A stretch of 45,668 bases of DNA from positions 1-45,668 of IMG/VR virus record IMGVR_UViG_3300006793_000063. One strand, 5' to 3'. The translations under genes were made by a program, and so were the position numbers. Shown here one piece after another: positions 7,741 to 23,849 of this stretch. The DNA comes from a virus. Positions within the stretch are counted from its first letter, which is position 1. Each line of letters begins with the position of its first letter. A model generated the notes under the pieces. That model worked only from the letters and a program-made list of their open reading frames with translations, searched no databases and was not told the origin of the DNA.

Positions 7741-7850
7741 TTTTCCGTAATCTTTCAGATATTTCCCCTTTGGCTGCTCTTCTCCCTCAAAAATGTCGTA
7801 CAATACTTGTGTGACGTGACTTTTGAGGTTTCTTAGAGAGGAGATGTGCC
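7741..7850 (+). promoter_or_regulatory. Early regulatory cassette, copy 1 (degenerate)
   Basis: A diverged member of a ten-copy cassette family. -35-like TGCTCT at 7775-7780, 18-base spacer, TACAAT at 7799-7804, then GTGACGTGAC as in the other copies and a GAGAGGAGA ribosome binding site. The upstream segment keeps pieces (GTAATCTTTCAG, TTCCCCTT) of the stem-loop but the arms no longer pair well. It drives the first small early operon, 7851 onward. Confidence 0.7.
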
Positions 7851-8174
7851 GTGCGTGTTCCAACTGTAATTCACCTGAATCGATTCCGTGAGTTGATCAT
7901 GGAAGACATCGGGGTGGAAGTTCCAGACGTGCTGACGTTCAAAGTGAACGATCTGGTGGAGTTGATGAACGTACCACTCAACCGCCGGTTCTTTGGTCCC
8001 TTGAGTCCTCTGGTAGAGAATGCCATTGTGAACATCCAGTACGGGCTAGCATTGGGGACCGAAGCGATTATTGTAAAGTACAGCTATCTGATTGATTTTG
8101 CTGATAAGCATGGGGATGACGAGCGTGTAGTGACCAAGATTGTTTACCCTGGCGGGGAGGTACAAGTAGCATGA
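7851..8174 (+). CDS. Uncharacterised early protein
   Basis: A 107-residue protein with a GTG start 7 bases after GAGGAGA, directly behind cassette 1. The sequence has alternating hydrophobic stretches (IHLNRFRELIMEDIGVEV, LVENAIVNIQYGLALG) and no motif I recognise. Its stop overlaps the next start. Likely an early, host-directed or accessory protein by position only. Confidence 0.65.
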   Translation: MRVPTVIHLNRFRELIMEDIGVEVPDVLTFKVNDLVELMNVPLNRRFFGPLSPLVENAIVNIQYGLALGTEAIIVKYSYLIDFADKHGDDERVVTKIVYPGGEVQVA

Positions 8175-8374
8175 CGTGTATTTGCAGTTCATTTAATGTG
8201 CAGTTGGAAGGAGATGTGAAATTTTACGATCCGGATGACAAATGCTTGCGGCGGGATGACGGAACCAAATATCGATTCTATTGGCTCGGCTGTCCAGCTC
8301 ATAAAGGTCGTTCTTTCAGAAAGACCCCTTCATTGGTTGTGGGGTTGAAGATAGCCAACGAACTAGAAAGGTAA
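8171..8374 (+). CDS. Uncharacterised small Cys-containing protein
   Basis: A 67-residue protein with an ATGA overlap to the gene before. MTCICSS and WLGCPAH supply two cysteine sites that could bind a metal, and KYRFYWLGCPAHKG looks like the last strand of a small zinc-ribbon-type fold. No family assigned. Confidence 0.6.
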   Translation: MTCICSSFNVQLEGDVKFYDPDDKCLRRDDGTKYRFYWLGCPAHKGRSFRKTPSLVVGLKIANELER

Positions 8375-8378
8375 GCTG

Positions 8379-8741
8379 ATGGAGTGCCCACACTGCAACA
8401 AGCAATCAGTTTTTGAGGCTGTGGAGATGATGAAGTTCAGACCTACCATTGAGAACTGGAATCTGGACAATCCACTGCATCAGCTGCCTGCTGCTTTGTA
8501 CACTTGCGTCGAGTGTGATGGGACAGTCAAGATCGATCTCAAGTGTCATTATTTGCAAGCCATCGAAACTCCGTTGATCTTCGACGACACAGCGAAGCAG
8601 ATTCTTGCAGCGGCCAGGAAAGATCGATCGAAGCCAGTCCCCAGAAGCATCATCGTGGCTCTGCGTCAGCGGAATTTCAAGAGAGTGCCTGACGATATGA
8701 CCGGCTTGGATGTGGTTCGTTTGATTCTGGGCCAGACATGA
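8379..8741 (+). CDS. Zinc-ribbon protein of unknown function
   Basis: A 120-residue protein. The N-terminal CPHC (residues 3-6) and a later CVEC at about 46-49 form a probable four-cysteine zinc ribbon. The remainder is a helical segment ending in a GLDVVRLILGQT helix. It closes the first early operon; cassette 2 begins right after its stop. Function unknown. Confidence 0.65.
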   Translation: MECPHCNKQSVFEAVEMMKFRPTIENWNLDNPLHQLPAALYTCVECDGTVKIDLKCHYLQAIETPLIFDDTAKQILAAARKDRSKPVPRSIIVALRQRNFKRVPDDMTGLDVVRLILGQT

Positions 8742-8859
8742 TTCCCCTTTATTTTCACAATCTTTGTGATTTCAAGGGGATTAGAGTGGTCTTTTCCCCT
8801 TCGAATGCCGTATAATAAAGATGTGACGTGAGTGGTGTTCTTGAGAGGAGAAAAGTGAG
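8742..8859 (+). promoter_or_regulatory. Early regulatory cassette, copy 2
   Basis: Stem-loop with CCCCTT (8744-8749) pairing AAGGGG (8774-8779) and an inner TCACAA/TTGTGA stem. Then the promoter core: TGGTCT at 8787-8792, 18-base spacer, TATAAT at 8811-8816, followed by the GTGACGTGAGTGGTGTTCTT leader and GAGAGGAGA RBS for the gene at 8860. Confidence 0.85.
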
Positions 8860-9042
8860 ATGGGCAAACTGATTTATTCTGGATGCATCGGCAATGGAAA
8901 GCTGAAAGAACTGGAAGTGATTCAGCTGAAGAGCGGTCGAGTTCGAATGATGCTGGCGGCTGGTGGCTGCTATGGTCAGATCTTTGAAGGGTCGATTGAA
9001 GAAGCCCGAGCGGAGTACAAACGACTGAAAAAGGAGAACTGA
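8860..9042 (+). CDS. Uncharacterised 60-residue early protein
   Basis: A small protein with a glycine-rich N-terminal half (YSGCIGNGKL) and a helical C-terminus (EEARAEYKRLKKE). It is the first gene behind cassette 2 and is followed within two bases by a 432-residue gene. The pattern of short strands and a final helix suggests a compact alpha/beta fold; no family recognised. Confidence 0.65.
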   Translation: MGKLIYSGCIGNGKLKELEVIQLKSGRVRMMLAAGGCYGQIFEGSIEEARAEYKRLKKEN

Positions 9043-9043
9043 G

Positions 9044-10342
9044 ATGAGTGACAATACTGTTGAACCTAGAACCTATTTCATTCCAATTTGCTGTTTGGAA
9101 GAGCTGACGGCCAAGATCGAGAAGCTGAATAAACGGGCCAAAAAACTGGGAGCCACTCCAATCGGGATGGAAGTTGGGGACAAATCTGTTCGGTACGGTA
9201 TCCACGAAATGGATACCATCGCATGGGTGGAAGTGGTTGAGCCCCATCACAAGCCCACTGGGCAGGTCATAGAAGTCCGAGAAGTGACTGTCACAGGGGA
9301 ATCCCCCAAATATGACGGGTGGACGTTCCTGGCGACTCTGGAGCCTGTGGGCGAAAAGAACATAATCCGATCGCTGGATGATGAGTGTGACTTGTCAGAG
9401 TACCGGGATCGAGTTGGGGAGTGTGATCACTGCCGGAAAGATCGTCGGAGAAAAGACACTTATGTCGTTCGCCACGATGATGGCAGAATGATGATGGTTG
9501 GCAAAACTTGCCTGAAGGACTTTCTGGGGCACAGCAATCCCAATTCATTGGCAGCGTGGGCATCCGCCATGTTCGGACTGGATGATCTGTTTTCCGGGTA
9601 TGCTGATTCTGATGGATTCGGGGAGCGGTCGGTCGGCAGCTGGTCACTGGAACTCTTCCTGGGATACGTGGCTGGCTACATCCGAGCCTATGGTTGGGTT
9701 TCTGGAAAAGAAGCTCATGAGAGTTTGGGTGCCAAGTTCTCCACTGCCCATGAAGTGGTCGATCACCTGGCCACTCCAGATGCTTACAGAAACGAAGCTT
9801 GGAATCGTGTTGAAGAGAAGATCTTCCCCACTGCAACTTCAGTCTGTAATAAAGCAGCAGCGGCCATCGAATGGGCCAAAGCCATTGAAACCGGCAACGG
9901 CAACGACTACCTGGACAATCTGCAGTTGATCGCAGAAGCGGGGTACGTCACCCAGCGGCTGGCCGGATACGCGGCTTCCATGCTGATCGCTCATGATCGA
10001 TTCTTAGATCGGGAGCTGGAGCGGCTGAAGAAAGCTAATCGTCCTGATTCTCACCATGTGGGAAACATCAAGGAACGAATGACGATGACTGTCACTTGTG
10101 AGCGGATTTTCACGAGTGAAGGAATGTGGGGAGTGACTGGGATCCACAAGATGGTTGATGCGGATGGAAATGACATTACCTGGTTCGCTTCCGGCTCTGC
10201 GGAATGGTTGGACATCGGTAACACTTACGTTGTCAAAGCCACCGTCAAAGAGCACAGCGAGTACCGGGATCGGGCTCAGACCATCGTCAATCGAGTGAAG
10301 ATCATGGAAGAAGTGGCGGAAGAAGTTGCGAGTGTTGGCTGA
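9044..10342 (+). CDS. Conserved-looking zinc-finger/OB-like protein, function unknown
   Basis: A 432-residue protein. After a basic N-terminal region there is a treble-clef-like segment, CDHCRKDRRRKDTYVV (about 128-143) with MMMVGKTCLKDF (about 150-161), giving four cysteines in C-x2-C and a distal cysteine. The central part is helical. The C-terminus (VTCERIFTSEGMWGVTGI, VKATVKEHSEYRDR) looks like an OB-fold strand pattern that often binds nucleic acid. I have seen this kind of architecture in phage and plasmid genomes without known function. It is the second gene of the cassette-2 operon. Confidence 0.75.
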   Translation: MSDNTVEPRTYFIPICCLEELTAKIEKLNKRAKKLGATPIGMEVGDKSVRYGIHEMDTIAWVEVVEPHHKPTGQVIEVREVTVTGESPKYDGWTFLATLEPVGEKNIIRSLDDECDLSEYRDRVGECDHCRKDRRRKDTYVVRHDDGRMMMVGKTCLKDFLGHSNPNSLAAWASAMFGLDDLFSGYADSDGFGERSVGSWSLELFLGYVAGYIRAYGWVSGKEAHESLGAKFSTAHEVVDHLATPDAYRNEAWNRVEEKIFPTATSVCNKAAAAIEWAKAIETGNGNDYLDNLQLIAEAGYVTQRLAGYAASMLIAHDRFLDRELERLKKANRPDSHHVGNIKERMTMTVTCERIFTSEGMWGVTGIHKMVDADGNDITWFASGSAEWLDIGNTYVVKATVKEHSEYRDRAQTIVNRVKIMEEVAEEVASVG

Positions 10343-10354
10343 TTCAGTTACATT
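10326..10354 (+). promoter_or_regulatory. Possible promoter for the sigma-like gene
   Basis: TTGCGA (10326-10331), 17-base spacer, TACATT (10349-10354). The stretch TTACATTAG recurs in the promoter ahead of the terminase module at 44195-44203. Candidate only; four of six bases match the -10 consensus. Confidence 0.35.
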
Positions 10355-10396
10355 AGTCAATTGCAGAAATTTGGACTTAACCTGAGGAGAAACAGG

Positions 10397-10933
10397 ATGC
10401 AGGCTTTGATGGAAGTGGACCCAGAACGGGAGACGTACGAAGACGTGGAGCAGCTGATCAACAAGATCTGCAATCGATTCGTGAAAACGTATGGCGGGGA
10501 ATTTGATGAGCTGAAAGGTATTGCCAATTTGGCCTATGTTCCAGCCAGCCGAAGCTATGAACCGGGACACGGCACCAAGTTCACATCTTACATATCCACA
10601 TGCGTCTGGAGGCGTCTCAAGTACCACTGTGACATCCAGCGAAGAAACGTGACGGCTCAGTCGCTGACGACAAAAGAAGGCGAACAGCGAGACGTGGAAG
10701 CCCCTGGTGCTTCTGATTTCAGAATTAGCAGCATGCTGAAACAGCTGTCAGAAGACGCGAAACAGATCGTACAGGTTGTGGTTGGCAGTCCGGAAGATTT
10801 GGCCGAGACGCTACTGCCGCCTGGGACGCACACCTTCTATGCAAGAGCTGCAGTCAATAAGTACATGAAGTCGTTGGGCTGGAAACCAGCTCGGATCAAA
10901 AAGTGCTTGGCTGATATCAAGGGGGTGCTGTAG
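10397..10933 (+). CDS. RNA polymerase sigma factor-like protein
   Basis: A 178-residue protein; the ATG at 10397 follows GAGGAGAAACAGG. Residues about 27-75 resemble sigma-70 region 2: a helix FDELKGIANLAYVPASRSYE followed by GTKFTSYISTCVWRRL, the hallmark G-x-K-F-x-(S/T)-Y segment for -10 recognition. The C-terminal part (ISSMLKQLSEDAKQIVQVV, YMKSLGWKPARIKKCL) could be a region-4-like helix-turn-helix. It may redirect host polymerase to the unusual cassette promoters, which is inference. The stop overlaps the GTG of the helicase gene (TAGTG). Confidence 0.6.
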   Translation: MQALMEVDPERETYEDVEQLINKICNRFVKTYGGEFDELKGIANLAYVPASRSYEPGHGTKFTSYISTCVWRRLKYHCDIQRRNVTAQSLTTKEGEQRDVEAPGASDFRISSMLKQLSEDAKQIVQVVVGSPEDLAETLLPPGTHTFYARAAVNKYMKSLGWKPARIKKCLADIKGVL

Positions 10934-12333
10934 TGCCAAGCAGTCCAATGCCTCACCAGAAAGATGGCATCAAGTTCATCGAGAAGCATCACGGAAGGGT
11001 GCTTCTCGCTGACGATATGGGGTTGGGAAAGTCGTTCACTTCGTTGGGGGTTCTGTATCGAAATCCTGACATGTTCCCGGCTGTGGTGGTTTGTCCAGCT
11101 GGGGTGAAGTTCAATTGGGAGCACGAAGCTCAGCATCACTTCGGATATCGAGCTTCGATCTGTGAAGGTGAAGCAGCTCCAAATCTGACGGATCGGGCCG
11201 GGATTCCCCAGCTGACGATTATCAATTACGACATCTTGGCTCCACGGAGAAAAGATGATCGAGTGGTGAAGATCAAGCCGTGGACAGATTACCTTCGGCA
11301 GCTGAAGCCGAAGACTCTGATTCTCGATGAATGTCAGATGTTGGGAGGTCGGGCAACGAAACGGACCAAAGCAATCACCAAGCTCAGCAAGGAGTTCAAG
11401 CACATCATTGCGATGTCTGGGACTCCGATTGTGAATCGACCGATCGAGCTGTTTCCAATTCTTCGGATCCTTTGGCCAAGGGAGTTCCGTTCGTTCTGGG
11501 AGTATGCACAGCGTTACTGCAATCCGAAGCTCAAGCCGTGGGGTTGGGAGTACAAAGGTGCTACCAATTTGGACGAGCTCCACAATCGATTGAGGCGGTT
11601 GGGGATGCTGCGACGAACTGAAGGTATTCTGAATCTGCCAAATAAGAAGACTTCAATCACAGTGATGCCGATGAAAGATTCCAGCCAGTATCACATGGCT
11701 GAGAATGATTTCCTGGCATGGGCTCGAAAGCACAAAGCAGACCGAGTGCATTCGATCAAGAAAGCCGAAGCTGTCAGCAAGGTGGGCTACCTTTTGCGGT
11801 TGGCGGCTGAGCTGAAGATGGATTCTTGTGTGGATTGGGCCAACAAATTCTTGGATGAGAATCCAAAGGAGAAGCTGGTGCTGTTCGCTTTCCACAAGCC
11901 AGTGATCAAACGACTGACCAAAGAAATTCCTGTGAAGTCGATCGTGATCGATGGGACCGTGACGGGCAGAGTTCGACAAGAAGCCGTCTGGCAGTTCCAG
12001 AAAGATCCACAGACTCGTCTCTGCGTGGCTCAGTTGAAGGCAGCGGGGGTTGGGATCAATCTCACAGCAGCGGCCACCCTGGCTCATGTGGAGCTGTGGC
12101 ACAATCCAGCGACTCACAATCAGGCTTCCAAACGGATCCATCGCATTGGCCAGAAGTCAGACACAAACATCCACTACTTGATCGCTCAAGGTTCGATCGA
12201 AGAACGTCTCTGCAAGCTGTTGCAGAAGAGACAGGAGATCATCGCGGCGATCATCGATGGAGGCGATTCGCCAAAAGACTTCAACATTTACCAGGAGCTG
12301 GTTTCAGCTTTGGGCAAAGGAGCTTTTTCATGA
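10933..12333 (+). CDS. SNF2-family DNA helicase/translocase
   Basis: A 466-residue superfamily 2 ATPase. DDMGLGKS (27-34) is Walker A, ILDECQ (130-135) the DExx box, AMSGTPI motif III, LVLFAFHKPVI and GVGINLTAA motifs IV-V, and ASKRIHRIGQ motif VI, the SMARCAL1/RapA-type signature. It lacks extra domains, so it is a minimal core translocase like those in many phages. It may remodel replication forks or displace host proteins. GTG start coupled to the sigma-like gene; ATGA coupling to the next gene. Confidence 0.9.
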   Translation: MPSSPMPHQKDGIKFIEKHHGRVLLADDMGLGKSFTSLGVLYRNPDMFPAVVVCPAGVKFNWEHEAQHHFGYRASICEGEAAPNLTDRAGIPQLTIINYDILAPRRKDDRVVKIKPWTDYLRQLKPKTLILDECQMLGGRATKRTKAITKLSKEFKHIIAMSGTPIVNRPIELFPILRILWPREFRSFWEYAQRYCNPKLKPWGWEYKGATNLDELHNRLRRLGMLRRTEGILNLPNKKTSITVMPMKDSSQYHMAENDFLAWARKHKADRVHSIKKAEAVSKVGYLLRLAAELKMDSCVDWANKFLDENPKEKLVLFAFHKPVIKRLTKEIPVKSIVIDGTVTGRVRQEAVWQFQKDPQTRLCVAQLKAAGVGINLTAAATLAHVELWHNPATHNQASKRIHRIGQKSDTNIHYLIAQGSIEERLCKLLQKRQEIIAAIIDGGDSPKDFNIYQELVSALGKGAFS

Positions 12334-12650
12334 CGGACGAAAACAAGATTCGCGATATCGACAGGGCCAGGGAAACCATCCGGAGACCAATCCGGATCGA
12401 TCCAAAAACCGTGGCAGCGATCAATTTGCGGAATATCACACACAAGATCCGACAGGACTTCAAAGCGGCTTGTGCGAAGTCCGGAATTAGTGTTCACCAT
12501 GCACTGAGAGAGTACGTTGAGATGTGTATCCAAAAAGGTGAAGTGCTGACCATGTTGTACTACGACATGATCATGGAGATCAAAACACTGAAAGCCCAGA
12601 TCGAAGAATTGCAGCAGCAGATAGATGACGACAGCATTCCAGATCTTTGA
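12330..12650 (+). CDS. Coiled-coil protein with ribbon-helix-helix-like core
   Basis: A 106-residue protein. Residues about 18-66 (PIRIDPKTVAAIN, then SGISVHHALREYVEM) have the strand-helix-helix rhythm of a small RHH DNA-binding domain. Residues 70-100 form a likely coiled coil (MIMEIKTLKAQIEELQQQI). Starts at an ATGA overlap with the helicase gene and ends the operon; cassette 3 follows three bases later. A regulator is plausible but unproven. Confidence 0.65.
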   Translation: MTDENKIRDIDRARETIRRPIRIDPKTVAAINLRNITHKIRQDFKAACAKSGISVHHALREYVEMCIQKGEVLTMLYYDMIMEIKTLKAQIEELQQQIDDDSIPDL

Positions 12651-12653
12651 TTA

Positions 12654-12763
12654 TTCCCCTTAATCTTTAGGATTCCAAGGGGATTAGAGTGGTCTTTTGA
12701 GGGGAAAGTGACGTATAATAAAGATGTGACGTGAGTGATGTCTTTTGTTTGAGGAGAATTGAG
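12654..12763 (+). promoter_or_regulatory. Early regulatory cassette, copy 3
   Basis: Stem CCCCTT (12656-12661) with AAGGGG (12677-12682); TGGTCT at 12690-12695; 18-base spacer; TATAAT at 12714-12719; leader GTGACGTGAGTGATGTCTTT; RBS GAGGAGA ahead of the ATG at 12764. Confidence 0.88.
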
Positions 12764-13078
12764 ATGGCCAGGTCAGTAGTGATCAAAGCGTTTGGCAAAG
12801 AGCTGGAAGTTTACTTGGTGAAACACAAGTACCCCAATGGTAGAATCGCCATCGCTGCCATCGATTTAGACGATGATGAACCCTGGGGAACACTCTCTGT
12901 CAATGTTCCAGACGCTCCTCTGTACGAAGATGAAATCATCATCAAAAACTACTCAGAGAATCACGTTTGGGCCATGAAGGTTGTGGAAGCTTTCCCCGAA
13001 ATGTTCGAAGAGACTGGCCTGACTGCTCGGGTTGGCTATCGATCTTGCCCCGTGTACAAGTTCAAAGGAGGACTTTAG
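12764..13078 (+). CDS. DUF4313-like protein
   Basis: A 104-residue protein. FGKELEVYLVKHKYPNGRIAI, then DEPWGTLSVNVPD and IIIKNYSENHVW give the pattern I associate with DUF4313 (PF14190), found on mobile elements and phages, function unknown. The ATG at 12764 sits behind GAGGAGAATTGAG; an in-frame GTG at 12731 in the cassette leader would add 11 residues but has no RBS. It ends two bases before the next start. Confidence 0.75.
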   Translation: MARSVVIKAFGKELEVYLVKHKYPNGRIAIAAIDLDDDEPWGTLSVNVPDAPLYEDEIIIKNYSENHVWAMKVVEAFPEMFEETGLTARVGYRSCPVYKFKGGL

Positions 13079-13079
13079 A

Positions 13080-13856
13080 GTGACTACTAAAGAGAAGAAG
13101 AGAACGAAGATCTACGAATGGGAAAAGCCGGTGGAGTTCACCGAGACATTCAAATGGGACGATCTGGATGCCACATTCAAGGCTGAGAGTTACAATGCCT
13201 GGATGCTTGATGCTTTGCCCATGATTGGAGAAATGACCATACTGGAGCACACAGAAGCTCGTGAGAAGGGCATCAAGATCGGAGATCGCATATTCTACAA
13301 GCGGCGACTGCCATTGTATTCTTTGCGGAGCCGCTGGTTGTTTTGCACTCCGACGATGAGCAGGACAGAGCTTTCTGTCTACAAAGGTCGAACTGAGCGA
13401 ATGGTTCGCTTTGATGCGGAGATCGGAATCCCGGTCTTGGCCGATCAGACTTTGAGCCCGTGGATGTCGCTGACTCCAAATGAAGTCTTTACCCTTCGGG
13501 GGCAGATCAGACGAGCTAAAGGCAAAGTGGCCATGGCTGGGCTGGGACTGGGTTGGGCAGCTCGGAAAGTTCTGGAGAGGAAGAAGGTTGAGCATCTGAC
13601 TGTGTACGAGAAAGATCAGGATGTGATCGATTACTTCGGCAAGAGCCTTGTGGAAGATTTTGGTGATCGAGTGACTCTGGCCTGTGGCTCAGCCTATGAA
13701 GCAGACTGGATGAGGTACGACGTTGCTCTCTGGGACATCTGGATGGGCATCGGAGACGCTGCGTGGGACAATCGGTATAATAGGATCAAAGACGAGATGA
13801 TTGCCGCTGGGAAGGTCTGTGTGGGATGGGCTGACGGCAATGTGCATCGGTCTTGA
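13080..13856 (+). CDS. Spermidine-synthase-like / class I methyltransferase fold protein
   Basis: A 258-residue protein, GTG start with AAAGGAGGA nine bases upstream. The C-terminal half has a Rossmann SAM-binding pattern: GKVAMAGLGLGWAARKVLE (glycine loop), VEHLTVYEKDQDVIDYF (acidic end of strand 2), and YDVALWDIWMGIGDA (motif IV position). The N-terminal half is unassigned. It may be a phage methyltransferase or an inactive relative; the substrate is unknown. Confidence 0.7.
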   Translation: MTTKEKKRTKIYEWEKPVEFTETFKWDDLDATFKAESYNAWMLDALPMIGEMTILEHTEAREKGIKIGDRIFYKRRLPLYSLRSRWLFCTPTMSRTELSVYKGRTERMVRFDAEIGIPVLADQTLSPWMSLTPNEVFTLRGQIRRAKGKVAMAGLGLGWAARKVLERKKVEHLTVYEKDQDVIDYFGKSLVEDFGDRVTLACGSAYEADWMRYDVALWDIWMGIGDAAWDNRYNRIKDEMIAAGKVCVGWADGNVHRS

Positions 13857-13866
13857 GGAGAGTGTG

Positions 13867-14109
13867 ATGATAATGATTGTGAGAAAGAGACGGGGGTACA
13901 TTTCAGTGGCTCCAGCCAGGCGGATACCACCAAAAGCGTATTTGCCACCGAAGCCCAAAGTCTTCAAGAAAAAGAAACAGGCTGAAGCAGCGGCAGCTAA
14001 AATGTTGGATGATCGGTACAAAACGCATGTGTACCGAATGGGAGGCGGCTGGGTTGCTACGGTTGCCGATTATGGTGAGATCGTCCACTACGTGATCAAG
14101 GACCATTGA
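13867..14109 (+). CDS. Small basic protein
   Basis: An 80-residue, strongly basic and proline-rich protein. RRIPPKAYLPPKPKVFKKKK (about 20-39) is followed by an alanine-rich helix and a GGGWVATVADYG strand pair. It could bind nucleic acid. The chosen ATG is 7 bases behind GAGGAG. It is immediately followed by the primase gene. Confidence 0.6.
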   Translation: MIMIVRKRRGYISVAPARRIPPKAYLPPKPKVFKKKKQAEAAAAKMLDDRYKTHVYRMGGGWVATVADYGEIVHYVIKDH

Positions 14110-15572: not shown

Positions 15573-15585
15573 GAGGAGAACTGAG

Positions 15586-16596: not shown

Positions 16597-16612
16597 AGAG
16601 GAGAACTGAGTG

Positions 16613-16819: not shown

Positions 16820-16834
16820 GAGGAGAACTGAAGA

Positions 16835-17017: not shown

Positions 17018-17032
17018 GAGGAGAACTGAAGA

Positions 17033-17818: not shown

Positions 17819-17862
17819 GCGATGAAATAGCTGGGGTGGATTTCTCCTCTCCCCCATGCTCG

Positions 17863-17902
17863 GCCCGATCGATGTACGTCACTCCATCGATCGGGCTTTT
17901 TT
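17863..17902 (+). terminator. Intrinsic terminator
   Basis: Perfect 12-bp stem GCCCGATCGATG (17863-17874) with CATCGATCGGGC (17885-17896), 10-base loop, then TTTTTT. It isolates the cassette-5 operon from cassette 6. Confidence 0.92.
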
Positions 17903-17913
17903 CGTGTCAAAAT

Positions 17914-18029
17914 TTCCCCTTTATTTCCACAATCTTTAGGATTCCAAGGGGATTAGAGTGGTCTTTTGAGGGGAAAGTGACGTATAATAAAGATGTGACG
18001 TGAGTGATGTTCTTGAGAGGAGAAAAGTG
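17914..18029 (+). promoter_or_regulatory. Early regulatory cassette, copy 6
   Basis: Stem CCCCTT (17916-17921)/AAGGGG (17946-17951); TGGTCT at 17959-17964; 18-base spacer; TATAAT at 17983-17988; leader GTGACGTGAGTGATGTTCTT; RBS GAGAGGAGA for the ATG at 18030. Confidence 0.88.
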
Positions 18030-18191
18030 ATGTTGATGACTGCCGCAAGAGAAGCTGAGTCCCAACGACGGAACGATTCTGAAGACATGAGCGTTGTTGA
18101 GTCTGTTGAGATGGCAGTGATTACTGCCGGGGCTTTGTCTGCTTTTGGTTTGGTTTGTCAGTTAGCTGACTGGATAGTGGGGGCGATATGA
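18030..18191 (+). CDS. Small single-pass membrane protein
   Basis: A 53-residue protein: a charged N-terminal 25 residues, then a hydrophobic C-terminal span (VEMAVITAGALSAFGLVCQL, continuing to WIVGAI) long enough to cross a membrane. Small early membrane proteins in phages often act on host envelope or superinfection; no direct evidence here. Overlaps the next gene by four bases. Confidence 0.6.
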   Translation: MLMTAAREAESQRRNDSEDMSVVESVEMAVITAGALSAFGLVCQLADWIVGAI

Positions 18192-18451
18192 GAGTCATAG
18201 ATGCGTTCAAGGAAGTCTTTGCCGCTGCCGATGAGCAGTGCGGTCACGGTCCTGATTCGGCTGTGATCGAGTGGGTCGACAGCATGCTCCTGATCACACA
18301 GGATCCTACTGAAGATCCTGAAGTCGATGTGTTCAATGTGGGAGTTTACTCCAAAGCGGTTTGGAACGATGGGGGATGTCCTTATCTGACCAGAGAATTC
18401 AAGCAGCTGAATGATGCTGTCAATTATGTAGATGGGTTCACTGATGCGTAA
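18188..18451 (+). CDS. Uncharacterised acidic protein
   Basis: An 87-residue acidic protein (many D/E in the middle, DPTEDPEVDVF) with an N-terminal helix. ATGA overlap with the membrane protein and 8-base overlap with the next gene, so all three are coupled. No family recognised. Confidence 0.6.
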   Translation: MRVIDAFKEVFAAADEQCGHGPDSAVIEWVDSMLLITQDPTEDPEVDVFNVGVYSKAVWNDGGCPYLTREFKQLNDAVNYVDGFTDA

Positions 18452-19427
18452 ATCTTGGTTTGAAAAACTGATGGGATTCAATGAGTACGATCACGATCAT
18501 GACATGGTCAAAAGTCTGCTCAGGGTTTCGAGTAACGGGTTTCTGCAGTCTCGGGCGAACAGAAAGAAGTACCGCTGTGGGGTTCTGGATACTCCATCTG
18601 TGGAAGGTCTTCGCAGAGTGGCCAGCACTCACTATGGACCACCAGGAGACCGATTGAAATTTGAGCAAATTGCTGCCGATGTCACAAATCTGCATCGGGA
18701 TCCAGCCAATGCCGGGGCTCTGTTCCAGGTGGCGTCTCAGTTCAATCTGCTGGAAATGGTGTCTCCTGACATGACTCCAGAGTGTGGGCTGGCGATCTAT
18801 GAGAACGATCACACTCAAGGGCCAGCATGTGCCATTGCCTGCGGAGCTGGCACGATCTATCGAAACTACCTGGCCGAAGTAAACGGACAGGTGGGGCAGG
18901 ACAAGAGAAATCAGATCGACTGTTCTGATGACATCGGGCACTTGCTGGGGAATGCGAGAGAAGAGCTGTGGAAGATGGCGAATGGATATCTGTTGCCGAC
19001 TGTTGAAGGACTGCGAGAGATCGCCGGATGGGTCGTTGACGAGCCTGGCAGTTTACGCAACAAAGCCATCAACCTTCTGAAGATCGGGATCCAGTGGGAC
19101 ACTGAGGTCACTCTGGAAGACTGCGGGCATTGTGTGACTCAGGCGTATTGCTCAGCGGTCCCGGTTTCTTACTCTCGGATTTTCTCCGATGAGTGGAAAG
19201 AGTTGGGGATCTTGATTCTGGAAGGTGCCTATGAAGCCACTCTCTGTGCTGGCATCATTAACGCAGTGGCCACCGGAAATAACACGGTGTTTCTGACTTC
19301 ACTGGGTGGGGGAGCGTTCGGCAATCCTGAAGAGTGGATCACCGGAGCGATCGACAAAATACTCAAAAAGTACGCAGCTTTCGATCTGGATGTCAAACTT
19401 GTCCACTATCCCAAGAGCATCAAATGA
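18444..19427 (+). CDS. Conserved macrodomain-like protein
   Basis: A 327-residue protein. GALFQVASQFNLLEM (about 88-102), QGPACAIACGAGTIYRNY (about 124-141), and the C-terminal TVFLTSLGGGAFGNPEEWI followed by a helix and LDVKLVHYP resemble the order of ligand-loop motifs in macro domains and related ADP-ribose-binding proteins (N-terminal strand, glycine-rich loop 2, final strand). This is a motif-level resemblance only. If right, it might bind or hydrolyse ADP-ribose. ATG at 18432 is an alternative start. Confidence 0.6.
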   Translation: MRKSWFEKLMGFNEYDHDHDMVKSLLRVSSNGFLQSRANRKKYRCGVLDTPSVEGLRRVASTHYGPPGDRLKFEQIAADVTNLHRDPANAGALFQVASQFNLLEMVSPDMTPECGLAIYENDHTQGPACAIACGAGTIYRNYLAEVNGQVGQDKRNQIDCSDDIGHLLGNAREELWKMANGYLLPTVEGLREIAGWVVDEPGSLRNKAINLLKIGIQWDTEVTLEDCGHCVTQAYCSAVPVSYSRIFSDEWKELGILILEGAYEATLCAGIINAVATGNNTVFLTSLGGGAFGNPEEWITGAIDKILKKYAAFDLDVKLVHYPKSIK

Positions 19428-19693
19428 TCATGGAGATTCCCCCCAAGTACCTGAAAGCAATGAAGCAGGGAACGCAAGCCCCGCCTGGTAGCATCGAAAA
19501 GATCAACATAATGTGTGATCGTCACTCGCTGGGCATGCCTTTACATGCAAAAGGCGATGCTCATCTTTTCGCTGATCTGTCAGCTAGTGAAGCAAGTAAG
19601 AGAATCCATGCAGACCGTTCGTGTGGTTTGCATTTGAGCCACAGGGGGCAGCTGCCGAAGTTCAAGAGTGAAAAACCAGGAGAGCAGGCATGA
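19424..19693 (+). CDS. Small uncharacterised protein
   Basis: An 89-residue protein starting at an ATGA overlap. CDRHSLGMPLHAKGDAHLFAD and CGLHLSHRGQL give several His and Cys residues that could bind a metal, but no known pattern. It ends the operon; cassette 7 begins at its stop. Confidence 0.6.
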   Translation: MIMEIPPKYLKAMKQGTQAPPGSIEKINIMCDRHSLGMPLHAKGDAHLFADLSASEASKRIHADRSCGLHLSHRGQLPKFKSEKPGEQA

Positions 19694-19813
19694 TTCCCCT
19701 TAATCTTTCACAATCTTTGTGGTTTTAAGGGGAAAAGAGTGGTCTTCAGAGGGGAATCTAGCGTATAATAAAGATGTGACGTGAGTGATGTCTTTTGTTT
19801 GAGGAGAGAAGTG
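19694..19813 (+). promoter_or_regulatory. Early regulatory cassette, copy 7 (best-paired stem)
   Basis: TTCCCCTTAA (19694-19703) pairs perfectly with TTAAGGGGAA (19725-19734), with an inner CACAA/TTGTG stem and TCT loop. TGGTCT at 19740-19745; 18-base spacer; TATAAT at 19764-19769; leader and GAGGAGA RBS for 19814. Confidence 0.9.
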
Positions 19814-19912
19814 ATGGCTGCTGCAAGAAACGAAGCGGAGTTGCCCTGGGCTGGGGGCTGGGTGTTCTTGGCCGGTTTGGTGGTCGCTGTTGTTGGTGGC
19901 ATGTTTGCTTGA
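19814..19912 (+). CDS. 32-residue membrane microprotein
   Basis: A short gene behind an ideal RBS (GAGGAGAGAAGTG). The peptide has a polar 12-residue start and one transmembrane span (GWVFLAGLVVAVVGGMFA). Position at the promoter-proximal end of the cassette-7 operon supports its being real. Confidence 0.6.
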   Translation: MAAARNEAELPWAGGWVFLAGLVVAVVGGMFA

Positions 19913-19934
19913 CTTTTGTGTGAGGAGAAGACTG

Positions 19935-20258
19935 ATGGGGATCGCGGAAATCACTTTGAAACAGTTGGGTGGGGCCGGTCGCTTGAAAGCGTTTGCTGGC
20001 GGCAGAGACTTCATGAGTGATGGAGTCAACGGTGAGATCTTGATGTTCAAGTTCAAGGGCAAGGTTGCCAACTACGTCGAAATCGCTTTGGACGCTGCCA
20101 GTGATACTTATGTTTTGAAGTTCAAGAAAGTCGGACGGATGAGTCGCAAGACTTTCAAGGCTCCCAAGGTCGTCTTGGTCGAAGAAGTCGCTGGTGTTTA
20201 CTGTGACAATTTGGTCGAAGTGTTTGAGCGTGTTTCTGGTTTGTATTTGAGTTTGTGA
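19935..20258 (+). CDS. Uncharacterised beta-rich protein
   Basis: A 107-residue basic protein (KAFAGGRDFMSDGVNGEILMF, then KVANYVEIALD and TYVLKFKKVGRMSRK). The alternating strand pattern with basic residues suggests a small beta-barrel, perhaps nucleic-acid-binding. RBS GAGGAGAAGACTG. The tRNA-like RNA starts eight bases after its stop. Confidence 0.65.
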   Translation: MGIAEITLKQLGGAGRLKAFAGGRDFMSDGVNGEILMFKFKGKVANYVEIALDAASDTYVLKFKKVGRMSRKTFKAPKVVLVEEVAGVYCDNLVEVFERVSGLYLSL

Positions 20259-20265
20259 AATATTG

Positions 20266-20384
20266 TGCTCGCAGAGGTCGAAGGACCTAACTGGCACATC
20301 GGGGTGCTATTTTCAAGTCTAACGGCGAAGTAGCAACGTCAAAGGCATGAAACCTGATGGGGAGTTCGAGTCTCCCAGCGAGCA
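20266..20384 (+). ncRNA. tRNA-like structured RNA
   Basis: About 118 bases folding like a modified tRNA. GCTCGC (20267-20272) pairs with GCGAGC (20378-20383), extendable by T20266-A20384. GGGAG/CTCCC (20360-20364/20372-20376) with loop TTCGAGT is a textbook T arm. AGGTC/GACCT (20275-20288) sits where a D arm would, with a 4-base loop, followed by AACTGGCA. CATCGGG (20297-20303) pairs CCTGATG (20353-20359) directly next to the T stem, in the anticodon-arm position, extended by a hairpin GCTATTTT/GAAGTAGC. No CCA is encoded; a T-run follows. It is too long for an ordinary tRNA. Strong pairing, uncertain identity. Confidence 0.6.
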
Positions 20385-20444
20385 GCTTTTTGAGTTTGTT
20401 GTAATCTGTTGCAATTCTTTGCAACAACCGAGAGGAGAGTTCTG

Positions 20445-20684
20445 ATGGCCAGGTCTACGTTTCGATGCAATTTGGCAAAGTACACTGGATCTCGGGGGGT
20501 GGAAGCTCATGCCTTTCGGGCTGGAGTAGACGAAGCCTTTCGCCAGACGATGACGACAGCCGATGATTGCCATTGGACTGCGTTGAAGCTTCGAGAGGAC
20601 GAGAACGGGGCTGTTTCGTGGTATGTCGATTTGCATTCTTGTCCACCACACTGGCCAGAAGCCTATACGGAAGGAGATGACTGA
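20445..20684 (+). CDS. Small uncharacterised protein
   Basis: A 79-residue protein (FRCNLAKYTGSRGVEAHAFR, later WTALKLREDENGAVSWYVDL) with an aromatic C-terminal half ending in an acidic tail. RBS GAGAGGAGAGTTCTG. It is the first gene behind the tRNA-like RNA and stops in a TGATG overlap with the next gene. Family unknown. Confidence 0.6.
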   Translation: MARSTFRCNLAKYTGSRGVEAHAFRAGVDEAFRQTMTTADDCHWTALKLREDENGAVSWYVDLHSCPPHWPEAYTEGDD

Positions 20685-20842
20685 TGCGGAGAGAATGGGC
20701 TGTGTTCCGGGGGAACTCTTTGGTGAGTCGCCACTGGCACGAAGCCGATGCAAGAGACAAATTGAGAGCCGGTTGTCATGTACGGCACTGGCGATACGGA
20801 TGGGGAAATAAAGGAGGATGGTGCTGTGAGCTGCCTTACTAA
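20684..20842 (+). CDS. Small basic aromatic protein, 52 residues
   Basis: A short gene behind AAGGAGATGACTG, coupled by TGATG. The peptide is rich in Trp, Arg and His (NSLVSRHWHEADARDKL, then RHWRYGWGNKGGWCC). It overlaps the next gene by 17 bases, so one of the two starts may be misplaced, but each has its own RBS. Confidence 0.55.
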   Translation: MRREWAVFRGNSLVSRHWHEADARDKLRAGCHVRHWRYGWGNKGGWCCELPY

Positions 20843-21053
20843 AATGACAGGTGAACAATTTCGGTCTGCGAAGCTGACGATTGCAAATGAGTTGCAGCAG
20901 AGCAAAGAACGCGGCGATCGCTGCTGGCACAGGGCCTGGGCGATGGTGACGATGGTGGAGCACACCTTTTGTCACGATGATTACATCTTGTGTGGTCAGT
21001 ACGTTTGGGATTATATCAACGAACTCGATCGATTTAAGCTGGAGAGTGACTGA
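20826..21053 (+). CDS. Uncharacterised small protein
   Basis: A 75-residue protein. GTG start 8 bases after AAGGAGG; the ATG at 20844 has no such RBS. The sequence is helical (GEQFRSAKLTIANELQQSKE, YVWDYINELDRFKL) with a histidine/cysteine cluster in the middle. Stops in a TGATG overlap with the next gene. Confidence 0.6.
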   Translation: MSCLTKMTGEQFRSAKLTIANELQQSKERGDRCWHRAWAMVTMVEHTFCHDDYILCGQYVWDYINELDRFKLESD

Positions 21054-21274
21054 TGCCTACGAAACCACCACCACCTTTCAATCTGGATGCCAGGCCGGGG
21101 CTGGGTCCAGCTGTGTCGGCGGCGTACGATGCGTATTGTGGACTGCCAACAACAGACCAGAGCCCTGGACCGAGTGAGTACCGAGCGGCAGAGTATCGAC
21201 GAATCCATGATCGCTTCGTCACTTCGGGAAAATATCCCACCTATCGTGAACTTTGGAACAAGAAGGAGAACTGA
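21053..21274 (+). CDS. Small proline-rich-start protein
   Basis: A 73-residue protein: TKPPPPFNLDARPG at the N-terminus, then a helical, tyrosine-rich part ending in YPTYRELWNKKEN. No motif recognised. Coupled to both neighbours. Confidence 0.6.
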   Translation: MPTKPPPPFNLDARPGLGPAVSAAYDAYCGLPTTDQSPGPSEYRAAEYRRIHDRFVTSGKYPTYRELWNKKEN

Positions 21275-21275
21275 A

Positions 21276-21455
21276 ATGAGCGGAATCAAAAAACATGGCA
21301 GTGTTTACATTGAGCTGGCGGGGAACTTTGCCCCAGAATGGCGACAACTCGTGGATGCTGTCAAAGCGTTTGAAGGCAATGATGCCAGTGTCGCAGATGC
21401 TGCTAAAGAACTGGTTGAATGTGTTTTGTATGTGACTGATGAGAAGGAGAACTGA
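21276..21455 (+). CDS. Small uncharacterised protein, 59 residues
   Basis: A short protein with RBS AAGGAGAACTGAA. GSVYIELAGNFAPEWRQL is followed by two helices (VADAAKELVECVLYVTDEKE). No family known. Confidence 0.58.
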   Translation: MSGIKKHGSVYIELAGNFAPEWRQLVDAVKAFEGNDASVADAAKELVECVLYVTDEKEN

Positions 21456-21456
21456 G

Positions 21457-21678
21457 ATGGATCCACAAGCCACCATTTGCGATCTACTGGACGCAATGCA
21501 AAGAAACGACAGAGAAGCCGTGGATGAATTGCTGGACGCTCTGAAGGGCTGGAACAAAGCAGGGGGCTTCATGCCGATCATTCGGAAGAGTTTGCAAGCA
21601 AATCAGTATAGTGTCTACCGATACGACAGAACTGATGCGTATCGTCCTGGATATGCAGAGACAAACAATTCCCCTTAA
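21457..21678 (+). CDS. Small helical protein ending inside cassette 8
   Basis: A 73-residue protein. ICDLLDAMQRNDREAVDELL, then LKGWNKAGGFMP is a pattern I associate with short phage proteins of unknown role. Its TAA stop is supplied by the CCCCTTAA arm of cassette 8, so the cassette has probably replaced the original 3' end. Confidence 0.65.
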   Translation: MDPQATICDLLDAMQRNDREAVDELLDALKGWNKAGGFMPIIRKSLQANQYSVYRYDRTDAYRPGYAETNNSP

Positions 21679-21776
21679 TCTTTCAGAATTGAGGGGTTTA
21701 GAGTGGTCTTTTCCCCTTCAAGTGACGTATAATAAAGATGTGACGTGAGTGATGACCTTTGTTTGAGGAGAGAGAA
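21669..21776 (+). promoter_or_regulatory. Early regulatory cassette, copy 8
   Basis: CCCCTTAAT (21671-21679) pairs with ATTGAGGGG (21688-21696), shorter loop than other copies. TGGTCT at 21704-21709; 18-base spacer; TATAAT at 21728-21733; leader GTGACGTGAGTGATGACCTT; RBS GAGGAGA. Confidence 0.87.
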
Positions 21777-22364
21777 ATGAGATACTCGTTTGCTAATGCT
21801 TCAGCGGCTGAGCTGGTTGAGCTGTCCGAAGCGGGCAAAGTTGAAGTGGCTGGGAACTTGAAGATCTATCGCTTCGATGCGAACGATGGCCCATCTTTGA
21901 AGATCTGGCGGGGACGGGCAAAGAAGCCTTATGCCCACTATCGCTTCGCCAATGAAGAGCGGCGGGAAGAGTACATCAGAAAGCAGATTGCCAATGATGC
22001 CGAGAAGACCGAGCTGAAACTGAAGCACAAAGCTGAAAGCAAAGCTCGGAAAGCCGAGACGCGAAAGCGGTTCAAAGTCGGAACGATTCTGCATTACTCT
22101 TGGGGCTATGGTCAGACTCAGTGTGAGTATTACGAAGTGATCGAAGTCAAAGGAGCCTATGCGATCATTCGAGAGATTGCCGCCAAGACGGTTCCTGGCT
22201 CTGAAGGCTTCATGTGTGACAAGCGGGTTGCTTGTCCTGGTGTCTTCATCGGTCCCAAGATGCGGAAGCTGATCGGTGAGTATGGGTGCCGGATGGCATC
22301 ACACTCAGCTGCAGCGAGTCCCTGTGATCCTCTGGAAGAGAATTATTGCTCTTGGTATCACTAA
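21777..22364 (+). CDS. Uncharacterised phage/plasmid-type protein
   Basis: A 195-residue protein. The N-terminal part (KIYRFDANDGPSLKIWRGRA, KKPYAHYRFANEERREEY) is followed by a basic coiled region and a conserved-looking C-terminal domain (GTILHYSWGYGQTQCEYYEV, AYAIIREIAAKTV). I have seen these segments on mobile elements with no assigned function. First gene behind cassette 8; followed by a probable terminator. Confidence 0.72.
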   Translation: MRYSFANASAAELVELSEAGKVEVAGNLKIYRFDANDGPSLKIWRGRAKKPYAHYRFANEERREEYIRKQIANDAEKTELKLKHKAESKARKAETRKRFKVGTILHYSWGYGQTQCEYYEVIEVKGAYAIIREIAAKTVPGSEGFMCDKRVACPGVFIGPKMRKLIGEYGCRMASHSAAASPCDPLEENYCSWYH

Positions 22365-22371
22365 TCAAACG

Positions 22372-22398
22372 GGGGGCAGTGGTTGCCCCCATATTTTT
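22372..22398 (+). terminator. Probable intrinsic terminator
   Basis: GGGGGCA (22372-22378), loop GTGGT, TGCCCCC (22384-22390), then ATATTTTT. A 7-bp GC-rich stem followed by a T-run, just after the stop at 22364. Confidence 0.75.
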
Positions 22399-22426
22399 CT
22401 GAGTTTCATCTGAGAGGAGAATTGAG

Positions 22427-22639
22427 ATGGATTTGATGACATTCCTCAGAGTCAAACCGATCGGCAGAAAGATCACTGTCAATGTCAGTCGAAACGGGGA
22501 GCCGTTTGGGCAGCTGTGGACTTGGTCCAACACTCGAACAGAACGACATCCTTGGCACAGCAAGCCTCTGGATGGAGAACACAAGACCCACAAGACGCAA
22601 AAAGCTGCCCGCAAACGTATGCTGGAAGAAGCCAAATAA
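22427..22639 (+). CDS. Small basic protein
   Basis: A 70-residue basic protein (MTFLRVKPIGRKITVNVSRN, then a Lys/His-rich C-terminus KTHKTQKAARKRMLEE). RBS GAGAGGAGAATTGAG. The strand-rich start and basic tail would suit nucleic-acid binding; unproven. Confidence 0.6.
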   Translation: MDLMTFLRVKPIGRKITVNVSRNGEPFGQLWTWSNTRTERHPWHSKPLDGEHKTHKTQKAARKRMLEEAK

Positions 22640-22862
22640 ACCGCAACGGCACAGGCAAATCAAGCAGATTGATCAGCTGCCTCTGCTTGCCGCAATACGG
22701 AGGAGGTGTTCGTGAAAAATCGATTTGTGTGATTACTCCCAGCTGGTTGGCCTAACCATTTCTCAGATGACGGTCTGGGGAAGATGCCGGAAGATCTCAA
22801 GCCCGTTCAGGACCAGCGAGCGGCCCAAGCGAATCTGCCGGGTGAAATTCCCGGCTTACTGT
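22640..22862 (+). other. Gene-poor stretch, possibly a decayed small gene
   Basis: No sound gene. A good RBS (GGAGGAGG near 22700) leads only to a six-codon frame. In other frames coding-like fragments continue (ITPSWLA; WPNHFSDDGLGKMPEDLK), as if a gene had taken one or two frameshifts. A 6-bp hairpin GCCGGG/CCCGGC lies at 22837-22855 shortly before cassette 9. A 44-residue frame from the ATG at 22784 runs into the cassette and is doubtful. Confidence 0.4.
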
Positions 22863-22988
22863 TTCCCCTTTATTTCCACAATCTTTGTGATTTCAAGGGG
22901 ATTGGAGTGGTCTTTTGAGGGGTGATATGCGTATAATATAGATGTGCGGCGGGGGTCGTCGCTGTTGGTTTGTTTGAGGAGTTGAGTG
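22863..22988 (+). promoter_or_regulatory. Early regulatory cassette, copy 9
   Basis: CCCCTT (22865-22870)/AAGGGG (22895-22900) with inner CACAA/TTGTG; TGGTCT at 22908-22913; 18-base spacer; TATAAT at 22932-22937. The transcribed leader differs (GTGCGGCGGGGGTCGTCGCT) from the usual GTGACGTGAG. RBS GAGGAG. Confidence 0.85.
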
Positions 22989-23237
22989 ATGCGAAATCGA
23001 AAAGCCAAGATGATGCTCCCTGATCGTGACGTTCGGGAGCTTCGTCTGTTGCGAGCGTGGGAGGACGCTGCTGTTGACGCTGGTTGGACTTGGTCCGATC
23101 GTCATGATGTTCTTTCTGACGCCAAGTCTGCTGATCGGAAGCACATGCTGCGTGTTCTTGCTGCCAACACTGTTGGAGACGATACGCTTGCCATGCTTGC
23201 CATGGCTCTTGCCGATCCTATGGCTCTGTCTGTTTGA
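22989..23237 (+). CDS. Small helical protein
   Basis: An 82-residue protein with a basic start and three helices (VRELRLLRAWEDAAVDAGW, HMLRVLAANTV, LAMLAMALADPMALSV). GTG at 22986 or ATG at 22989 may start it. Family unknown. Confidence 0.62.
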   Translation: MRNRKAKMMLPDRDVRELRLLRAWEDAAVDAGWTWSDRHDVLSDAKSADRKHMLRVLAANTVGDDTLAMLAMALADPMALSV

Positions 23238-23258
23238 TGCTGAAGGCCAGTGATCCGA

Positions 23259-23345
23259 TGACTGCTGATGACAAGTCGCTCTTGTCATCCGGGGCACCAT
23301 CCGCTGGCTTTCTCTTTCCCGGCTGCTGTAGAGGAGAATTCTGAT
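23259..23345 (+). CDS. Possible 28-residue peptide
   Basis: A short frame (MTADDKSLLSSGAPSAGFLF, then PGCCRGEF) whose stop overlaps the next ATG. Only a weak RBS (AAGG) precedes it, and part of it forms a hairpin, so this could be non-coding leader instead. Confidence 0.28.
23267..23289 (+). promoter_or_regulatory. Perfect 9-bp hairpin
   Basis: GATGACAAG (23267-23275), loop TCGCT, CTTGTCATC (23281-23289). No T-run follows; it lies between two small genes and may be an mRNA processing or stability element. Confidence 0.5.
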
Positions 23346-23442
23346 GAGTGACAAAGAAAAACGGGCTACAGAAGATTCATCACTGATGAAAGTTTGTGAA
23401 GCAATCGGAAAAATGAGCCAGAAGGAACTCGACCGATTGTGA
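23344..23442 (+). CDS. 32-residue small protein
   Basis: A short gene with an excellent RBS (GAGGAGAATTCTG). The peptide is charged and helical (SDKEKRATEDSS, then VCEAIGKMSQKELDRL). No family; existence supported by RBS and placement in the cassette-9 operon. Confidence 0.55.
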   Translation: MSDKEKRATEDSSLMKVCEAIGKMSQKELDRL

Positions 23443-23486
23443 TTTGAGATCGATCTTCGATCCAACCGATTGAAAGGATTACTGCC

Positions 23487-23726
23487 ATGAGTGACGTTCA
23501 ACTGCAAAACAAGCACAAGAGTTTGCATCTGCCAGACGGCGGGATCCTGCTCTACCGATACGAAGAAGGTGATTGTGATACGATCGCCTGGCCGCTGCGG
23601 AAAAAGCAGCACAGCCAGCTTGCCGGGGCTCTGTACGCTGAGATGATGTGCGGAGAGATCGACGAGTACGCGAATGTGATCTTGCCGAATGGCGAGACGT
23701 TCGATGTGATCGGAAATTTGAAGTGA
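23487..23726 (+). CDS. Small acidic protein
   Basis: A 79-residue protein (HKSLHLPDGGILLYRYEEGD, then LAGALYAEMMCGEIDEYANV). RBS AAAGGA. A mixed strand/helix layout; no family recognised. Last gene before cassette 10. Confidence 0.6.
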   Translation: MSDVQLQNKHKSLHLPDGGILLYRYEEGDCDTIAWPLRKKQHSQLAGALYAEMMCGEIDEYANVILPNGETFDVIGNLK

Positions 23727-23759
23727 TTTTGGAAGTGGAATTTCCAGAAATATCCCGAA

Positions 23760-23849
23760 TCCGAACGGCTTAGTGTGGACTTTTCCCCTTCAAGTGACGT
23801 ATAATAAAGATGTGACGTGAGTGATGTCTTTTGTTTGAGGAGAGAAGCG
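23760..23849 (+). promoter_or_regulatory. Early regulatory cassette, copy 10 (no canonical stem)
   Basis: TGGACT at 23776-23781 (closest copy to the TTGACA consensus), 18-base spacer, TATAAT at 23800-23805, standard leader and GAGGAGA RBS. The CCCCTT/AAGGGG hairpin is missing; instead GGAAATT/AATTTCC arms occur at about 23714-23747. Confidence 0.83.

What the first reader, a model, noticed from the sequence alone, without database searches (positions are those of the whole stretch)
7741..23849. Ten-copy stem-loop/promoter cassette family organising the early region
The same unit recurs ten times: CCCCTT...AAGGGG stem-loop, a short linker, TGGTCT-N18-TATAAT, a GTGACGTGAGTG leader and GAGGAGA RBS. 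Each copy starts a small operon of unknown genes. Arm sequences vary but pairing is kept in copies 2-9 (copy 1 degenerate, copy 10 lost). The layout matches the PeSL (promoter early stem-loop) idea described for T4-type phages, but with different sequence, so it may be an independent mobile cassette family in another phage lineage.
Basis: partly seen in the sequence, partly recalled or inferred. Interest (0 to 1): 0.78.

Follow-up and report, generated by a model that had tools for sequence, protein, structure and literature searches.

The report
Ten-copy hairpin-promoter cassettes in a phage
An uncultivated phage carries about ten copies of a short control unit (a hairpin, a strong-looking promoter and a start leader), each placed to switch on a small group of mostly unknown genes, and several relatives carry their own differently spelled versions, so it looks like a plug-in system for adding accessory genes to a phage genome.

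Summary
Nine cassettes (8743-23850) plus one degenerate copy (7725-7850) sit directly in front of small operons. Seven share an exact 26-nt -10/leader block; seven share TGGTCT-N18-TATAAT. Hairpin stability over the ten copies is far above shuffles (summed z -6.4). Formal covariation is nil: no pair changes on both sides, only G-U-tolerant one-sided changes.

New here. (1) The -35/-10 spacer always keeps a third AGGGG-type box in either orientation; copies 3/6 and 8/10 differ by a near-exact 7-bp inversion between identical flanks. The nearest relative does the same with GGTTGTGG/CCACAACC. (2) Cassette modules recombine within the genome (PHI-like p 0.0006). (3) Cassettes 3 and 4-10 mark insertions of mostly unknown genes into a replication block conserved in about 75 relatives: primase-to-DnaB is 12.3 kb here against a median of 1.6 kb. 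(4) Several relatives carry their own multi-copy promoter repeats of unrelated sequence.

Best reading: PeSL-like boundary/promoter cassettes, probably co-regulated in trans through the boxes. A terminator role and movement between phages are not shown: no U-tract follows the hairpins, and no other phage found has this sequence family. New variant of a known kind.

The parts
7725..7850 (+). Cassette 1 (degenerate): different hairpin 7725-7763, TCCCTC-type box in spacer, -10 TACAAT 7799-7804, leader; gene starts 7851
8743..8859 (+). Cassette 2: hairpin 8743-8780, -35 8787-8792, spacer box CCCCTT 8796-8801, -10 8811-8816, leader GTGACGTGAGTG 8823-8834; heads genes 8860..12650 (incl. sigma-like, helicase, RHH)
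12655..12763 (+). Cassette 3: hairpin 12655-12683, -35 12690-12695, spacer box GAGGGG 12699-12704, -10 12714-12719, leader 12726-12737; starts 5 nt after stop of RHH gene
15002..15158 (+). Cassette 4: hairpin 15002-15030, -35 15037-15042, box GAGGGG, -10 15061-15066, altered leader with its own hairpin (about 15090-15128); starts 5 nt after stop of primase
16197..16302 (+). Cassette 5: hairpin 16197-16226 (13 bp, 3 G-U; inside end of upstream ORF), -35 TAGTCT 16232-16237, box GAGGGG, -10 16256-16261, leader 16268-16279
17915..18029 (+). Cassette 6: hairpin 17915-17952 (left half like copies 2/9, right half like copies 3/4), -35 17959-17964, box GAGGGG, -10 17983-17988, leader 17995-18006
19695..19813 (+). 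Cassette 7: hairpin 19695-19733, -35 19740-19745, box GAGGGG, -10 19764-19769, leader 19776-19787
21671..21776 (+). Cassette 8: hairpin 21671-21696, -35 21704-21709, box CCCCTT 21713-21718, -10 21728-21733, leader 21740-21751
22864..22988 (+). Cassette 9: hairpin 22864-22901, -35 22908-22913, box GAGGGG, -10 22932-22937, altered leader with small hairpin
23728..23849 (+). Cassette 10: family hairpin lost (weak unrelated hairpin 23728-23748), -35 TGGACT 23776-23781, box CCCCTT 23785-23790, -10 23800-23805, leader 23812-23823
10397..10933 (+). Sigma-factor-like protein (Sigma70 region 2), conserved next to the helicase in many relatives
12330..12650 (+). Ribbon-helix-helix protein, conserved between helicase and primase; candidate trans-regulator (binding not shown)
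12655..14109 (+). Inserted block 1: cassette 3 with three genes, between RHH gene and primase
15002..25148 (+). Inserted block 2: cassettes 4-10 with mostly unknown genes, between primase and helicase loader

Best explanation
Each cassette is a modular operon-boundary and restart unit. A hairpin at the end of the upstream gene closes off, trims or protects the previous message. A host-type (sigma70-like) promoter about 30 nt further on restarts transcription, and a standard leader with RBS starts a small operon of accessory genes. The cassettes carry AGGGG-type boxes around the -35, including one in the -35/-10 spacer that is kept in either orientation, so a phage DNA-binding protein probably controls the promoters together. 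Because copies share sequence, they recombine with each other within one genome, which would let accessory genes be added or exchanged at cassette seams inside a conserved replication block. Shown by sequence: anatomy, recombination between copies, insertion sites, box conservation. Inferred: promoter activity, what the hairpin does to RNA, the existence and identity of the regulator (the RHH protein at 12330 is only a candidate), and timing.
For: Promoter motif 7 vs 0 expected; 26-nt identical -10/leader in 7 copies. Hairpins collectively z -6.4 and fixed 29-31 nt before the -10 in copies 2-9. AGGGG/CCCCT and related boxes: 25 of 69 AGGGG/CCCCT sites of the window fall in the 2.1% of sequence just upstream of the ten -10s, at fixed positions. 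The spacer box survives inside the most variable stretch and flips orientation. Recombination: PHI-like p 0.0006 and four-gamete combinations. Insertion: primase-to-DnaB 12.3 kb against median 1.6 kb, max 6.4 kb in 75 relatives. Nearest relative G2 has >=18 kb after the primase with no shared cargo there and its own 7 cassettes with a spacer box in both orientations. Multi-copy promoter-like repeats also in L047, G001, L045 and L077; the same + strand search gave none in 430 shuffled loci.
Against: No transcript or binding data. No both-sided compensatory change in the stems. The -35 TGGTCT matches TTGACA at only 3 of 6. No U-tract after the hairpins, so a terminator role is unproven. In G2 the clearest inverted repeat lies around the predicted start site rather than upstream, so hairpin position is not conserved across the clade. 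RHH conservation (43 of 79 loci) also fits a replication role.
Confidence: 0.6

Rival explanations
1. DNA operator array: the inverted CCCCTT/AAGGGG pair and the spacer box are protein binding sites for a phage repressor or activator; the 'hairpin' is a by-product of inverted half-sites and does nothing as RNA.
For: Spacer box is kept in either orientation, as a double-stranded site would be. Box 2 to box 3 start-to-start 21-22 bp and box 1 to box 2 about 21-22 or 31-32 bp, near whole helical turns. In G2 the inverted repeat spans the predicted start site with the left arm untranscribed, so it cannot be an RNA hairpin there if the start is predicted rightly. A clade-conserved RHH protein is present, and an RHH protein is known to bind half-sites in different orientations (PMC9499535).
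Against: Inner stems also pair, with different sequences per copy. Copy 5 has lost box 1 yet keeps a 13-bp G-U-containing helix, and copy 1 has an unrelated strong hairpin. Helical phasing rests on very few independent length classes.
Confidence: 0.25
2. Pure terminator/RNA-processing plus promoter (strict PeSL reading): the hairpin ends or trims the upstream message; the spacer box is hitchhiking sequence.
For: Hairpins lie at or near the stop codon of the upstream gene in 8 of 10 copies. One relative (L047, 4390) has a true U-tract terminator upstream of its repeated promoter.
Against: No T-run directly follows the hairpins; separate U-tract terminators exist at 17862-17902, 22372 and 25331. 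Sense-over-antisense stability is not beyond composition (p 0.14). Does not explain the conserved flipping box.
Confidence: 0.2
3. The promoters are read by the phage's own sigma-like protein (10397-10933), so the cassettes are middle rather than early promoters.
For: Sigma70 region 2 match (E 8.7e-5, just below the curated cut-off), sigma structures as best fold matches, conserved neighbour of the helicase in relatives. The -35 block GTGGTCTT is more conserved than a weak host -35 would need.
Against: -10 is a perfect TATAAT; the sigma-like gene itself lies behind cassette 2. A relative's repeated promoter has a near-consensus host pattern (TTGACT-17-TAGAAT in L045).
Confidence: 0.15
4. Independent transposable, MITE-like cassettes.
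For: Many near-identical copies at gene boundaries.
Against: No transposase or terminal repeats were seen with the units; all copies have one orientation, flush with genes; no copies outside this phage population.
Confidence: 0.04

Closest known systems
T4-type PeSLs (promoter early stem-loop; Arbiol 2010, Comeau 2014, known here through PMC4503421 and general knowledge)
   Same: Dense repeats of stem-loop plus promoter between small accessory genes in a region of gene shuffling.
   Different: Not a T4-type genome by the genes seen; unrelated sequence; no terminator U-tract; additional spacer box in two orientations; no evidence yet of exchange between phages.
Extended start-associated sequences (ESAS/SAS) of cluster K mycobacteriophages (PMC3203893, PMC11373665)
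   Same: Multi-copy intergenic unit of inverted repeat plus SigA-like promoter (17-18 bp spacing) ahead of non-structural genes; consensus differs between subclusters, as cassettes differ between relatives here.
   Different: No SAS motif GGGATAGGAGCCC in the cassettes as read; different phage group; the hairpin lies upstream of the -35 here; copies are mosaics of one another.
L5-type stoperators (mentioned in PMC3203893)
   Same: Dispersed short sites with a role in transcription regulation.
   Different: Stoperators are 13-bp sites; here each unit is a complete promoter cassette with up to three AGGGG-type boxes.

Membership tests
T4-type PeSL | stem-loop directly upstream of a promoter, repeated between small genes | tested here: met
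T4-type PeSL | stem-loop is a transcription terminator | tested here: inconclusive
   no U-tract directly after the hairpins; other U-tract terminators exist
T4-type PeSL | early transcription in infection | not testable with these tools
   no transcript data
T4-type PeSL | T4-like genome | tested here: not met
   PolA-type polymerase, DnaB helicase, SNF2 helicase, sigma-like protein; no related phage DNA in the collection
T4-type PeSL | same motifs shuffled between related phages with different cargo | tested here: inconclusive
   cargo differs and the expansion site is shared with G2, but each phage has its own cassette sequence
Cluster K ESAS | paired with the 13-bp SAS GGGATAGGAGCCC | tested here: not met
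   cassette leaders read directly carry GAGGAGA-type RBS, no SAS
Cluster K ESAS | SigA-like promoter plus imperfect inverted repeat in several copies | tested here: met
Intrinsic terminator | GC-rich stem followed at once by a T-run | tested here: not met
   none of the cassette hairpins upstream of the -35 is among the terminator-like sites
Ribbon-helix-helix protein (12330-12650) | extended strand followed by two helices, with RHH relatives by fold | tested here: met
   helices 38-51 and 55-69 at high confidence; ParG, RelB DNA-binding domain and Arc among the matches, but E-values are weak and the strand is not assigned in the monomer model
Ribbon-helix-helix protein (12330-12650) | binds the AGGGG boxes | not testable with these tools
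   needs a binding assay

The most novel reading that the evidence does not exclude
A clade of phages uses co-evolving pairs of a small regulator (possibly the RHH protein beside the helicase) and a genome-specific box that sits in every cassette promoter and tolerates inversion; each phage homogenises its own cassette set, so accessory genes become regulated simply by landing behind a cassette.
Probability: 0.25. Interest if true: 0.72.

Novelty: new variant of a known kind. Interest (0 to 1): 0.56.

Why it matters
How phages add and regulate their many unknown accessory genes is poorly understood. Here a conserved replication block shows where such genes were inserted, and the cassettes mark the seams. 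That several relatives carry unrelated promoter repeats with a similar plan, and that two keep a spacer box in both orientations, suggests a common regulatory solution reached with different sequences and gives a direct test for the controlling protein.

Tried and rejected
Chance: the promoter motif has 0 expected matches. Cassette family elsewhere: three DNA-pattern scans of viral contigs gave only the same population (a 32.6-kb contig, 99.97-100% identical) plus chance matches L022-L025; blastn against phages and plasmids gave nothing. Covariation: no both-sided changes, so not claimed; a covariance model was not built because the stems come in two lengths with too few sequences. Strand preference of the hairpins as evidence for RNA: p 0.14 against shuffles, dropped. 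Cargo duplicated with cassettes: no paralogous pairs among cassette-region genes, only weak partial matches of two of them to a downstream gene. Host: one genome scan gave a single short match in a deltaproteobacterial MAG, not enough to name a host. Rfam and tRNA scans gave no match. The original PeSL papers are not held, so their details rest on PMC4503421 and general knowledge.

Full report
What is there. The window is a linear 45,668-base IMG/VR virus record. Ten -10 elements on the + strand between 7799 and 23805 head small operons. Seven have TGGTCT-N18-TATAAT (0 expected), seven have GTGACGTGAGTG exactly, and seven share the 26-nt CGTATAATAAAGATGTGACGTGAGTG. Copy 5 has TAGTCT, copy 10 TGGACT, and copy 1 is a distant relative (TACAAT). 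Start codons follow an RBS of the GAGGAGA type in most copies.

Hairpins. In copies 2-9 a hairpin with CCCCTT/AAGGGG outer arms ends 29-31 nt before TATAAT. There are two length classes (26-30 nt: copies 3, 4, 5, 8; 38-39 nt: copies 2, 6, 7, 9). Summed folding energy of the ten upstream regions is z -6.4 against dinucleotide shuffles; single-copy p values range from 0 of 500 to 0.37. Outer arms scarcely vary. Where they do (copy 5 TTCC against GGGG; copy 8), pairs survive as G-U. No pair shows changes on both sides. Copy 1 has a strong hairpin with other arms; copy 10 has only a weak one. Eight of ten hairpins lie within a few nt of the upstream stop codon or overlap the end of the gene. They are not directly followed by T-runs. 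A separate strong U-tract terminator stands before cassette 6 (17862-17902; z -5.5), and others are at 22372 and 25331.

A third box. The 18-nt spacer is the most variable part of the cassette, yet always holds an AGGGG-type box at the same place: GAGGGG in copies 3, 4, 5, 6, 7, 9; CCCCTT in 2, 8, 10; TCCCTC in copy 1. Copies 8/10 read TTTT-CCCCTTC-AAGTGACG and copies 3/6 TTTT-GAGGGGA-AAGTGACG: same flanks, centre almost exactly inverted. A site that survives inversion is most simply a double-stranded protein site. An alternative is that it pairs with whichever hairpin arm is complementary. 25 of the 69 AGGGG/CCCCT sites counted in the window correspond to listed boxes in the 2.1% of sequence upstream of the ten -10s.

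Recombination. Hairpin class, box orientation and leader class occur in all four pairwise combinations. A PHI-like test on the aligned columns gives p 0.0006 (copies 2-10, 23 informative columns, home-made implementation). Copy 6's hairpin joins a left half like copies 2/9 and a right half like copies 3/4. Cassette-region proteins are not paralogues of each other, so near-identical cassettes precede unrelated genes.

Insertion into a conserved block. The order sigma-like protein, SNF2 helicase, RHH protein, primase, loader, DnaB is shared with about 75 viral contigs found through helicase and primase, although not every member was detected in every contig and a few contigs are near-duplicates. 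Primase to DnaB is 12,340 bases here against a median of 1,618 and maximum of 6,434 in 75 relatives; helicase to primase is 1,777 against a median of 302. Cassette 3 begins 5 nt after the RHH stop and cassette 4 begins 5 nt after the primase stop. The nearest relative by primase (G2, IMGVR_UViG_3300027847_002746, 52% identity) also has a large expansion after the primase (at least 18.2 kb to the contig end), with none of the window's cargo found there.

Relatives have their own cassettes. G2 has seven: TATACT preceded by GGTTGTGG in four and by a CACAACC box in three, some with UUCG hairpins upstream, and a TTGTTGT...ACAACAA repeat around the predicted start. One G2 copy changes both arms together (CGTTGT/ACAACG). 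If the start is 7 nt after the -10, the left arm is not transcribed, so this repeat would be a DNA site. L047, G001, L045 and L077 have three copies each of other promoter-like repeats. On the + strand no cluster arose in 430 shuffled loci; some real clusters in other loci are tandem or RBS-type repeats rather than promoters (L018, L067, L075, L085, L091), so 'several relatives', not most, is the claim. The window's own sequence family was not found outside its population.

Candidate trans factors. 10397-10933 is sigma-like. 12330-12650 is an RHH protein by profile and fold, with a homologue between helicase and primase in 43 of 79 loci. An RHH protein is known to bind repeats in mixed orientations (PMC9499535), which is why it is named as a candidate for the boxes; nothing here shows binding, and its wide conservation beside replication genes allows other roles.

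Comparison. The layout works like T4 PeSLs and like cluster K ESAS units (PMC4503421, PMC3203893, PMC11373665), but a defining feature of each fails (T4-like genome; SAS pairing) and the terminator role is unproven, so it is filed as a new variant of a known kind and not as a member of either family.

Noticed in passing
window 20263-20386: Structured tRNA-like RNA of about 124 nt (closing stem GCUCGC/GCGAGC, T-arm-like hairpin with loop UUCGAGU) in the cassette region; z -3.2, no Rfam or ARAGORN match.
   Followed up: partly
window 25715-25780: Near-perfect 19-bp inverted repeat (CTTAGTGCTCTTTAAGTG...CACTTAAAGAGCACTAAG, z -7.2) in a roughly 690-base non-coding stretch just before the helicase loader gene; possible origin or regulatory site.
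   Followed up: partly
window 31622-34623: DNA polymerase I-type gene split into two ORFs (31622-32866 and 33253-34623) with a small ORF between; the same two-part arrangement is seen in relatives.
   Followed up: partly
window 28740-28840: Another promoter-like site (CCACTATAATGAGGG) with a GGAC-AAAA-GTCC hairpin directly upstream, before the gene at 28841, not of the cassette family.
   Followed up: no
window 15090-15128 and 22946-22962: The two full cassettes that lost GTGACGTGAGTG (4 and 9) carry different small hairpins in their leaders instead.
   Followed up: partly
window 598-1431: Sialyltransferase-like protein near the left end of the window.
   Followed up: no
L091:1301-2776: Four-copy CCGGACC...GGTCCGG hairpin repeat with tandem TCTATACGCTTTT units in a relative.
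   Followed up: no
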